Assembly (NCBI RefSeq): GCF_003351045.1
Contig: NZ_QQZY01000011.1
Span: forward strand, 1-56,861
Reading direction: 5' to 3'
DNA length: 56,861 nucleotides
Origin: Gaiella occulta
Lineage (GTDB): Bacteria > Actinomycetota > Thermoleophilia > Gaiellales > Gaiellaceae
The notes beneath the pieces are model-generated. The model made no database searches and had not been told where the DNA came from. It saw only the letters and a program-made list of their open reading frames with translations. Below are positions 54,982 to 56,861 of the stretch, one piece after another. Made by a program: the position numbers and the translations under genes. The first letter of the stretch is position 1, and each line of letters begins with the position of its first letter.

Positions 54982-55224
54982 ATGGCTCTCAAGGACCTGT
55001 TCTCGTTCCTCTTCGCGCGGTCGACGCAGGAGGAACGGGTCGCGCAGTACGTCATCCGCGAGCACGACCGCGGCCGCACGCTGAACGAGATCCTCGAGGA
55101 CAAGTACGTCGTCAACCGCCTCCAGTCGCCGCAGCAGCGCTCCCGCCTGCTCGACCGGCCCGAGATCCTGCAGGCCGTGGGCGGCGACATGGTCGAGGCC
55201 GCGAAGGCCTCCATCGGCTCGTAG
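54982..55224 (+). CDS. Small conserved-looking protein of unknown function, 80 residues
   Basis: Starts MALKDLFSFLFARSTQEERV and is mainly helical and charged, with YVIREHDRGRTLNEILEDKY in the middle. The N-terminal ten residues could bind a membrane surface. No family is recognised. Support for its being real: good G/C third-position bias and a near-consensus -10 box TACAAT (54969-54974) ending 7 nt before ATG 54982. The ORF could begin at 54943, but that lies upstream of the promoter. It precedes a tRNA gene. Confidence 0.72.
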   Translation: MALKDLFSFLFARSTQEERVAQYVIREHDRGRTLNEILEDKYVVNRLQSPQQRSRLLDRPEILQAVGGDMVEAAKASIGS

Positions 55225-55300: not shown

Positions 55301-55373
55301 GCGCCCGTAGCTCAGGGGATAGAGCGCTGCCCTGCGGAGGCAGAGGTCGCAAGTTCGAATCTTGCCGGGCGCA
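55301..55373 (+). tRNA. tRNA-Arg (anticodon GCG)
   Basis: A full cloverleaf can be drawn: acceptor GCGCCCG / CGGGCGC, D stem GCTC / GAGC, anticodon stem CTGCC / GGCAG with loop CTGCGGA, T stem GCAAG / CTTGC with loop TTCGAAT, discriminator A. The anticodon at 55334-55336 is GCG, which reads the arginine codon CGC. The body is very close to E. coli tRNA-Arg(CCG), differing at position 34. CCA is not encoded. A TAGACT box lies 11 bp upstream. The minus strand of this gene is also the end of the ygfZ frame. Confidence 0.95.
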
Positions 55374-56154
55374 CTGCACGGTGCCCGAGACGCAGGTGAG
55401 CGTCTGCGGGCACCTCGCGGCGGACGTACGCGAGCGCGAGCACGCGGTCGCCGTCCGCGACCGCGCTCGTGACCCGGCCGACGACCCTGTCGTCGAACGT
55501 GAGCGGCGCGTCGTAGGCCGGTAGCTCGGCGCCCTCGATCTCGAGCACGCGCAGCCCCCGGTTCGGGTGGCCGCGATAGTGGAGCCGCGCGACCGGCTCC
55601 TGGCCCGGATAGCAGCCCTTCGAGAAGCTGATCGCGCGCTCCTCGAGGCCCGCCTCGGCGGGCAGCACGCGCTCGTCGAGCTCGCGGCCGAAGCGTGGCG
55701 AGGCGGCCAGGATGCGCAGCCGCTCGAGCTCGTCGGCGGAGATGCTCTCGGCGCCGTCCGGCGGGTCGGCGTCGAGCAGCTCGCGGGCGGGAACGCCGTA
55801 GTCGTGGTTCGGCACGCCGCCCTCGACCTCCCCGAGGACGAGCGTCGAGACATGCTCCTCCGGCTCGATCGTGCACTTCGAGGCGAAGCGGAAGCGCGCA
55901 AGCTCGGCGCGCAGTCGCTCGCCGAGCTCCGGCTCGGTCAGCAGCAGGAAGTCGTCCTGCCCGCGGCGCAGCACTATCAGCGGCGCGACGAGTCGGGCCT
56001 TCGCCGTGAGCAGCAGCGCCTCGCACGCCTCGCCGGGAGCGAGCGCCTCGACGTCGTTGGACACCATGCGCTGCAGGTAGGAGGCGGCATCCGGTCCGGC
56101 GACGGCGACGAACGCCCGCGGCCGCGGGGCCGACCGTAACGCGTGAGCGGTCAC
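55312..56154 (-). CDS. ygfZ: YgfZ/GcvT-domain folate-binding protein
   Basis: 280 residues. The signature KGCYPGQEPVARLHYRG is the YgfZ motif K-G-C-Y-x-G-Q-E. YgfZ helps maintain iron-sulfur enzymes using a folate. The N-terminal AFVAVAGPDAASYLQRMVSNDV and the C-terminal barrel (RLRVLEIEGAE-like segment, VVGRVTSAVADGDRVLALAYV) fit. GTG 56154 follows TACACT by 7 nt. The frame has no stop until 55312, so its last 20 or so residues are encoded antisense to tRNA-Arg; the conserved fold ends before this tail. Confidence 0.87.
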   Translation of the reverse strand: MTAHALRSAPRPRAFVAVAGPDAASYLQRMVSNDVEALAPGEACEALLLTAKARLVAPLIVLRRGQDDFLLLTEPELGERLRAELARFRFASKCTIEPEEHVSTLVLGEVEGGVPNHDYGVPARELLDADPPDGAESISADELERLRILAASPRFGRELDERVLPAEAGLEERAISFSKGCYPGQEPVARLHYRGHPNRGLRVLEIEGAELPAYDAPLTFDDRVVGRVTSAVADGDRVLALAYVRREVPADAHLRLGHRAVRPARFELATSASAGQRSIP

Positions 56155-56172
56155 GCGAACTAGTGTAGGTGC
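56155..56172. promoter_or_regulatory. Face-to-face leaderless -10 boxes between ygfZ and the YuiH-like gene
   Basis: The 7-bp TAGTGTA (56161-56167) reads TAGTGT on the plus strand, 6 nt before ATG 56173, and TACACT on the minus strand, 7 nt before GTG 56154. One short element thus seems to serve two divergent leaderless genes, so the two promoters should compete. No -35 boxes are evident. Confidence 0.5.
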
Positions 56173-56784
56173 ATGTTCAGGAGCAAGGCCGAGAAGAAGG
56201 TGCTGGAGGCGGGCTACGAGCCGTCGCGGCTGCCGCCCGGGCAGTACCTGACCGACAAGTGGCCGGTGCTGCACGCGGGCTCCGTCGCCACCTACCCCGC
56301 CGACCTCGCCGGCTGGGACTTCAGGGTGTGGGGAGAGGTCGAGTCGCCGATCGCGCTCACGTGGGCGCAGCTGAACGAGCTGCCGACGGTCGAGGTGACG
56401 CAGGACATCCACTGCGTCACGCGCTGGAGCCGCTTCGACGTGACGTTCGCCGGCGTGCCGTGGTCGGCGATCCGCGAGCTCGTCGGCCAGAGGCCGAGCG
56501 CGCGCTTCGCGATCGCCCACGCGGAGGCCGGCTTCACCGCGAATGTCCCGGCGGAGGCCCTCGAGCAGGAGGGCGCGCTGCTCGCGACCCATGCCGACGG
56601 GGAGCCGCTGACGGCGGAGCACGGCCGGCCGCTGCGCCTCGTCGTTCCGGGCAGGTACTTCTGGAAGAGCGCCAAGTGGCTGCGCGGCATCGAGCTGCGC
56701 GGCGACGACCAGCCCGGCTTCTGGGAGCGTCTCGGCTACCACAACGACGCCGACCCGTTCGCCGAGCAGCGCTACGCCTTCTGA
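56173..56784 (+). CDS. Sulfite-oxidase-like molybdopterin oxidoreductase (YuiH type)
   Basis: 203 residues of the sulfite oxidase Mo-cofactor fold without a dimerisation domain. The molybdenum Cys is in QDIHCVTRWSRFDVTFAGV, with VVPGRYFWKSAKWLRGIEL and GFWERLGYHNDADPF near the end. No Tat or Sec signal is present, so it is probably cytoplasmic, unlike MsrP. The substrate is unknown. Xanthine dehydrogenase elsewhere in the window also needs molybdopterin, so the host must make that cofactor. Confidence 0.88.
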   Translation: MFRSKAEKKVLEAGYEPSRLPPGQYLTDKWPVLHAGSVATYPADLAGWDFRVWGEVESPIALTWAQLNELPTVEVTQDIHCVTRWSRFDVTFAGVPWSAIRELVGQRPSARFAIAHAEAGFTANVPAEALEQEGALLATHADGEPLTAEHGRPLRLVVPGRYFWKSAKWLRGIELRGDDQPGFWERLGYHNDADPFAEQRYAF

Positions 56785-56787
56785 GGA

Positions 56788-56803
56788 TCCCTCGAACGAG
56801 GGA
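56788..56803 (+). terminator. Hairpin after the YuiH-like gene
   Basis: TCCCTCG-AA-CGAGGGA is a near-perfect inverted repeat starting 3 nt after the stop. It overlaps a second possible stem, GGGACG (56800-56805) with CGTCCC (56814-56819). There is no U-tract. The remaining bases to the window end show nothing recognisable. Confidence 0.45.
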
Positions 56804-56861
56804 CGAAGGAATCCGTCCCGGCGCCGATCACTAGGGCATCCCACCCCACCCCCAGCTTCAC

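What the first reader, a model, noticed from the sequence alone, without database searches (positions are those of the whole stretch)
55301..55373. tRNA-Arg with anticodon GCG on a tRNA-Arg(CCG)-like body
Seen: the cloverleaf is clean and the anticodon is GCG; the rest is very close to E. coli tRNA-Arg(CCG). Known: bacteria normally read CGC with tRNA-Arg(ACG), deaminated to inosine by TadA. Inferred: this lineage may read CGC by G34, perhaps by recruitment of a CCG isoacceptor, and may have altered need for TadA. CGC is a heavily used codon here.
Basis: partly seen in the sequence, partly recalled or inferred. Interest (0 to 1): 0.6.

Follow-up and report, generated by a model that had tools for sequence, protein, structure and literature searches.

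The report
Inosine-free arginine decoding in Gaiella
Gaiella occulta and its relatives appear to have given up the usual inosine-modified transfer RNA for arginine, and the enzyme that makes it, and read the same codons with an unmodified replacement; this arrangement was known from other bacteria but here its history can be partly reconstructed.

Summary
The window is contig C11 of a genome whose size, contig number and N50 equal those published for Gaiella occulta F2-233T. ARAGORN and Rfam both find tRNA-Arg(GCG) at 55301-55374. The genome's 46 tRNAs include Arg GCG, TCG, CCG, TCT and CCT, with no ACG and no other A34 anticodon. It has no tadA: the two deaminase hits are a yeast-type cytosine deaminase and RibD. 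Across 249 genomes of the class, strong TadA matches occur in 0 of 78 of its own order and 148 of 171 outside. GCG by pattern occurs in 63 of 78 and 4 of 171. TCG was found in 23 of 24 order members and 0 of 39 outside. So {ICG, CCG} became {GCG, UCG, CCG} order-wide. The GCG body resembles tRNA-Arg(CCG), not ACG. Three outside genomes carry GCG with ACG and a TadA match but no detected UCG. The same end state is published for the Candidate Phyla Radiation and, without CCG, for some mycoplasmas. This is a new member of a known kind.

The parts
55301..55374 (+). tRNA-Arg(GCG) gene; no encoded CCA
   Evidence: ARAGORN; Rfam RF00005 70.7 bits; sequence
55334..55336 (+). anticodon GCG (G34 C35 G36)
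54982..55224 (+). 80-aa ORF upstream of the tRNA, no Pfam family at E 0.01; flanking gene
55312..56844 (-). convergent YgfZ/CAF17-like ORF (Pfam GCV_T); neighbours tRNA-Arg(GCG) in many members of the order; flanking gene whose 3' end runs antisense into the tRNA

Best explanation
The gene is a working tRNA-Arg(GCG) that has replaced the inosine-bearing tRNA-Arg(ICG). G34 reads CGC by Watson-Crick pairing and CGU by G-U wobble; tRNA-Arg(UCG) reads CGA (and CGG); tRNA-Arg(CCG) reads CGG. No tRNA of the genome has A34, so the deaminase TadA has no tRNA substrate, and tadA is gone. The state was fixed in or before the common ancestor of Gaiella's order. The GCG gene most likely arose by duplication of a tRNA-Arg(CCG) gene and a C34-to-G34 change. 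Shown: gene content, absence of ACG and tadA, order-wide pattern. Supported: CCG-type ancestry. Inferred: the decoding itself, charging with arginine, absence of inosine.
For: 46 tRNAs, all read by ARAGORN; Arg = GCG, TCG, CCG, TCT, CCT; no A34 anticodon. PF14437 finds only two places in the genome: L045 is closest to yeast cytosine deaminase (1e-40 against 1.5e-15 for the best TadA chain; NF008113 59 bits against cut-off 150) and L046 is RibD. With an HMM of 34 TadA sequences from loci of the class, eight of those sequences score 250-280 bits, L045 70, L046 43. Class sample of 249: best NF008113 match E <= 1e-33 in 148 of 171 outside the order and in 0 of 78 inside, where the best is 5e-21; this includes G003 (one contig) and G079 (5 contigs). 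GCG 63 of 78 inside, 4 of 171 outside; in all 129 order genomes held, 96 by pattern, plus G239, G197 and G247 by BLAST and ARAGORN, covering all four families. TCG 23 of 24 inside, 0 of 39 outside; ACG 0 of 24 inside, 36 of 39 outside (hand tally). Origin: GCG tRNAs of the order average 0.81-0.88 identity to outgroup CCG and 0.71-0.77 to outgroup ACG, with the 3-nt D-loop segment usual in CCG; GCG+ACG as one clade rejected, p-AU 0.011; GCG+CCG not rejected, 0.129.
Against: No RNA data: transcription, charging and absence of inosine are untested. The genome is a 34-contig draft (97.9% complete). 30 of 129 order genomes still lack a complete detected GCG gene (only 15 of the 33 pattern misses were re-examined by BLAST), among them G138 (97% complete), G015 (95%) and G219, which has only a 3' part. 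One order genome, G150, has an ACG tRNA, on contig C160, with a matched stretch identical to that of families f10/f12; I read it as a binning contaminant but did not prove it. Pattern searches miss variants: the strict GCG pattern found 37 of 249 where the relaxed one found 67. 23 of 171 outgroup genomes also lack a strong TadA match.
Confidence: 0.92

Rival explanations
1. The GCG tRNA is redundant: ACG and tadA exist but lie in unassembled gaps.
For: The genome is a draft at 97.9% completeness. G103, G118 and G055, outside the order, really do carry GCG beside ACG and a TadA match.
Against: Independent gaps at both genes in 78 genomes are not credible: TadA strong in 0 of 78, ACG pattern in 1 of 78 (G150); neither was found in the one-contig genome G003.
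Confidence: 0.03
2. The GCG tRNA arose from tRNA-Arg(ACG) by a single A34-to-G34 transition, the route proposed for mycoplasmas.
For: It is the simplest mutation and is the published route in Mollicutes (PMC3711424, passages).
Against: Body, D-loop length and anticodon stem resemble CCG; AU test rejects GCG+ACG, p 0.011. Caveat: 52 columns, 20 of 33 inner branches open, and G009's GCG falls outside the main GCG group.
Confidence: 0.08
3. The yeast-type cytosine deaminase (L045) has taken over tRNA deamination.
For: Same deaminase superfamily (Pfam dCMP_cyt_deam_1 and MafB19-deam).
Against: There is no A34 tRNA to act on, and the protein is closest to free-base cytosine deaminases.
Confidence: 0.02
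4. The GCG tRNA is a pseudogene or mobile-element remnant.
For: In G219 only a 3' part is left, and in G239 part copies lie near the full gene.
Against: 70.7-bit intact cloverleaf; sequence kept nearly constant over the order next to the same ygfZ-like gene in many genomes; without it CGC, the main Arg codon, has no dedicated reader.
Confidence: 0.01

Closest known systems
Inosine-free CGN decoding with GCG + UCG + CCG in the Candidate Phyla Radiation and some deep-branching bacteria (PMC8629427, passages; it cites Rafels-Ybern et al. 2019, not read)
   Same: Same three CGN anticodons and no tRNA-Arg(ACG).
   Different: In this class it looks secondary: other families keep ACG and TadA, so loss within the class can be read. 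Host is a GC-rich (72%) 3 Mb actinomycetote, not a reduced genome.
Mollicutes of the Pneumoniae group (PMC3711424, passages)
   Same: tadA lost; tRNA-Arg(GCG) and tRNA-Arg(UCG) present.
   Different: Mollicutes lost CCG and are said to have made GCG from ACG; Gaiella keeps CCG and its GCG has a CCG-like body.
tRNA-Arg(GCG) genes of Spirochaetes, Campylobacterota, Chloroflexota, SAR324, Elusimicrobia, Armatimonadota and others
   Same: Same anticodon. In the 43 non-Gaiellales genomes of the 45 searched, TadA over cut-off 0 of 43, ACG by pattern 0 of 43, TCG by pattern 26 of 43.
   Different: Distant lineages; three Chloroflexota genomes have intermediate TadA scores (E 3e-31 to 1e-24) that I did not resolve.
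Bacillus subtilis yaaJ (tadA) deletion (PMC10454642, passages)
   Same: Shows a bacterium can live without I34.
   Different: There A34 itself reads the codons; here A34 has been replaced altogether.

Membership tests
Inosine-free GCG/UCG/CCG decoding of CGN codons | tRNA-Arg(GCG) present | tested here: met
   order-wide
Inosine-free GCG/UCG/CCG decoding of CGN codons | tRNA-Arg(ACG) absent | tested here: met
   (46 tRNAs); 0 of 24; 1 of 78 (G150, probable contaminant)
Inosine-free GCG/UCG/CCG decoding of CGN codons | tadA absent | tested here: met
Inosine-free GCG/UCG/CCG decoding of CGN codons | tRNA-Arg(UCG) and tRNA-Arg(CCG) present | tested here: met
   L014 tcg and L017 ccg; TCG 23 of 24 and CCG 21 of 24
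Inosine-free GCG/UCG/CCG decoding of CGN codons | no inosine at position 34 in vivo | not testable with these tools
   Needs RNA
Mollicute-type route (PMC3711424) | tRNA-Arg(CCG) lost | tested here: not met
   CCG present, L017
Mollicute-type route (PMC3711424) | GCG derived from ACG by A34-to-G34 | tested here: not met
   (p-AU 0.011; weak, 52 columns)
TadA (candidate L045) | scores like TadA, HAE...PCxxC motif | tested here: not met
   59 bits against cut-off 150; 70 against 250-280 bits; the ORF has HGE and SPCDMC; nearest solved structures are cytosine deaminases

The most novel reading that the evidence does not exclude
A stepwise escape from an almost universal bacterial tRNA modification. 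A CCG tRNA gave rise to a GCG tRNA in an early ancestor within the class. Three genomes outside the order (G103, G118 of f11; G055 of f5) would still show the redundant middle state: GCG with ACG and TadA, and no detected UCG, so that I34 is still needed for CGA. When the Gaiella lineage also gained UCG, I34 became dispensable, and ACG and tadA were lost, perhaps in one deletion between the neighbouring tRNA-Ser(GCU) and tRNA-Ser(CGA) genes where family f9 still keeps them.
Probability: 0.3. Interest if true: 0.55.

Novelty: new member of a known kind. Interest (0 to 1): 0.42.

Why it matters
TadA is often called essential and wobble inosine near universal in bacteria. A whole order of free-living, GC-rich actinomycetotes that has dropped both, with near relatives in a possible redundant middle state, lets the order of events in the loss of a near-essential RNA modification be tested. 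It also predicts that these bacteria lack TadA-type A-to-I mRNA editing.

Tried and rejected
Strict tRNA pattern: at first it seemed to confine GCG to one family; the relaxed pattern and BLAST showed GCG in all four families of the order and in four genomes outside it. I report the relaxed counts.

Codon-usage signature: no clear shift. CGA/CGN is 6-9% in four members of the order and 2.5-8% in six outgroup genomes. Losing I34 has not purged CGA.

Remnants of tadA or ACG at the tRNA-Ser(GCU)/Ser(CGA) site: none. Best tblastn E 0.056; the only DNA hits are 20-22 nt matches in the 3' part of the tRNA. Protein synteny around that site: only two proteins had any match, neither beside the site. So the one-deletion story rests on tRNA order alone.

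General rule 'GCG excludes TadA': in the class it fails for G103, G118, G055 and G074, so I do not claim it. The NF008113 cut-off is passed by only 5 of 14 control genomes (12 match at all), so 'over cut-off 0 of 43' in distant phyla is weak evidence.

None of the titles or abstract starts listed reports tadA loss in Gaiella or its order. The library lacks most subscription journals, so this is no claim of priority. Diwan and Agashe 2018 and Rafels-Ybern et al. 2019 were seen only as references.

Full report
What is there. ARAGORN finds one tRNA in the window, tRNA-Arg with anticodon GCG at 55301-55374; Rfam gives 70.7 bits with a complete cloverleaf. The body is 90.4% identical to an E. coli tRNA-Arg that ARAGORN reads as CCG. 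A20, C35, G36 and A73, which I recall as arginine identity elements, are present in the sequence.

Which genome. The window is contig C11 of a genome with 3,028,529 bases in 34 contigs, one contig being 401,372 bases. The published Gaiella occulta F2-233T assembly has 3,028,529 bp, 34 contigs, N50 401,372, 520-fold coverage and 97.84% completeness (PMC6741124, passages). I take them to be the same. NCBI places Gaiellales in Thermoleophilia. One outgroup, G198, has the length published for Conexibacter woesei, 6,359,369 bp (PMC3035278, passages).

The tRNA set. The genome has 46 tRNA matches over cut-off, all read by ARAGORN (ARAGORN added two further calls, an Ala in L007 and a Glu in L009, that Rfam did not list). 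Arg anticodons are GCG, TCG, CCG, TCT and CCT. There is no ACG and no anticodon that begins with A.

No TadA. Pfam MafB19-deam matches two places. L045 is a 147-aa protein closest to yeast cytosine deaminase (1e-40) and far from TadA (1.5e-15), and below the TadA model's cut-off, 59 against 150 bits. L046 is RibD, 267 bits against a cut-off of 156. An HMM from 34 TadA sequences of class loci separates both from TadA: 70 and 43 bits against 250-280 for the eight TadA sequences scored, which are members of the training set.

How far it extends. In the same 249 genomes of the class: the TadA model's cut-off is passed by 143, all outside the order. Counting E <= 1e-33, 148 of 171 outside and 0 of 78 inside; the best inside is 5e-21. 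The strict ACG pattern hits 103 of 171 outside and 1 of 78 inside, G150, whose matched stretch on contig C160 equals that of families f10 and f12. The relaxed GCG pattern hits 63 of 78 inside and 4 of 171 outside. In all 129 genomes held of the order, 96 have GCG by pattern. BLAST of the 15 misses, with ARAGORN on loci of the best hits (30 loci, not every hit), adds G239, G197 and G247, two of them from family f4, so all four families have GCG. G219 has only a 3' part. The other 18 of the 33 misses were not re-examined. Some misses stay unexplained, among them G138 (97% complete) and G015 (95%).

The box was rebuilt. A pattern for all four CGN anticodons was run on 63 chosen genomes: 24 of the order, 39 outside, the four GCG-bearing outsiders included on purpose. 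My hand tally: inside, TCG 23 of 24, GCG 19, CCG 21, ACG 0; outside, TCG 0 of 39, ACG 36, GCG 4. So ICG + CCG became GCG + UCG + CCG. This makes sense by wobble rules (recalled): I34 reads U, C and A; G34 reads C and U only; CGA then needs UCG.

Where the GCG gene came from. Against ten outgroup ACG and eleven outgroup CCG sequences, position 34 left out, the eight order GCG sequences compared average 0.71-0.77 identity to ACG and 0.81-0.88 to CCG. Gaiella's best match is a CCG at 0.962 (G226). All have the 3-nt D-loop segment found in 17 of 19 CCG rows and 1 of 10 ACG rows. In a tree of 36 rows and 52 columns, 8 of 9 GCG rows group with CCG rows (98/91); a GCG+ACG clade is rejected (p-AU 0.011) and GCG+CCG is not (0.129); 20 of 33 inner branches are unresolved. 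Identity is dominated by a few stems, so this is support, not proof. The gene sits beside a ygfZ/CAF17-like gene in many genomes of the order, families f1 and f2 included.

Possible middle state. G103 and G118 (family f11) carry GCG, ACG and tadA within about 13 kb. G055 carries GCG and ACG with a TadA match of 147.6 bits, just under cut-off. G074 carries GCG near a TadA match, ACG not found. None shows TCG by pattern. The first three look like the redundant state that would precede loss. The GCG genes of G055 and G103 fall with those of the order in the tree (branch 96/91), which allows one early gain, but transfer or convergence is not excluded.

Possible site of loss. In family f9, tRNA-Ser(GCT), tRNA-Arg(ACG), tadA and tRNA-Ser(CGA) lie in that order in L079, L080, L081, L082, L084 and L314 (tRNAs; tadA positions). 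Of 30 TadA loci L085-L114, 17 have tRNA-Ser(CGA) within the fetched flanks, mostly close to tadA. In the order, 15 tRNA-Ser(CGA) loci were read; 7 have tRNA-Ser(GCT) next to it with 32-217 bp between and no tRNA in the gap, one of them with GCT inverted (L321); 8 have no GCT within the flanks; two further loci, L326 and L327, gave no tRNA-Ser and were dropped. Gaiella's gap is 217 bp. No remnant of tadA or ACG was found. One deletion is a fair guess, no more.

Known elsewhere. I searched 45 of these genomes, picked by hand for variety. Two are in Gaiella's order: L167 equals G114 where they overlap, and G338 has the same contig number, position and sequence as G296. In the other 43, TadA over cut-off 0, ACG by pattern 0, TCG by pattern 26 (the last two read by eye). 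The same scheme is stated for the Candidate Phyla Radiation (PMC8629427, passages); a version without CCG is described for mycoplasmas (PMC3711424, passages). So the kind is known. What is added is a clear case in a free-living, GC-rich order, with a CCG-type origin and relatives in a possible middle state.

Codon use. CGC makes up 54% of Arg codons in Gaiella; CGA is 6.3% of CGN, inside the range of six outgroup genomes (2.5-7.8%). The swap left no strong codon signature.

Noticed in passing
window 55312-55374: The convergent ygfZ-like ORF (minus strand) runs 63 nt antisense into the tRNA, and its stop codon is formed by tRNA bases TCA in the D arm. Antisense reading through this tRNA also shows in several relatives.
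   Followed up: partly
L283 (G239) and L299 (G219): G239 has a 5' half, a full copy (with two N) and a 3' part of tRNA-Arg(GCG) close together; G219 has only a 3' part. The GCG gene may serve as an attachment site for mobile elements.
   Followed up: partly
L079, L080, L081, L082, L084, L314: In family f9 tadA lies beside its substrate gene tRNA-Arg(ACG), between tRNA-Ser(GCT) and tRNA-Ser(CGA).
   Followed up: partly
whole genome G000: No tRNA-Pro(CGG) was found although the genome has 72% G+C; Pro anticodons are TGG and GGG.
   Followed up: no
L045 1501-1944: A yeast-type (Fcy1-like) cytosine deaminase gene follows what looks, by my reading of the translation, like an ABC transporter permease.
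   Followed up: no
G087:C3:377743-378611: Two neighbouring TadA-like matches, 146 and 184 bits, in one genome.
   Followed up: no
G122:C2:497794-498401: A second ACG + CCG pair of tRNA-Arg genes on another contig of the same genome, perhaps on a plasmid or other mobile element.
   Followed up: no
G150:C160:736-788: An ACG tRNA-Arg in a member of the order, matched stretch identical to families f10/f12: probable contaminant contig, not proven.
   Followed up: partly
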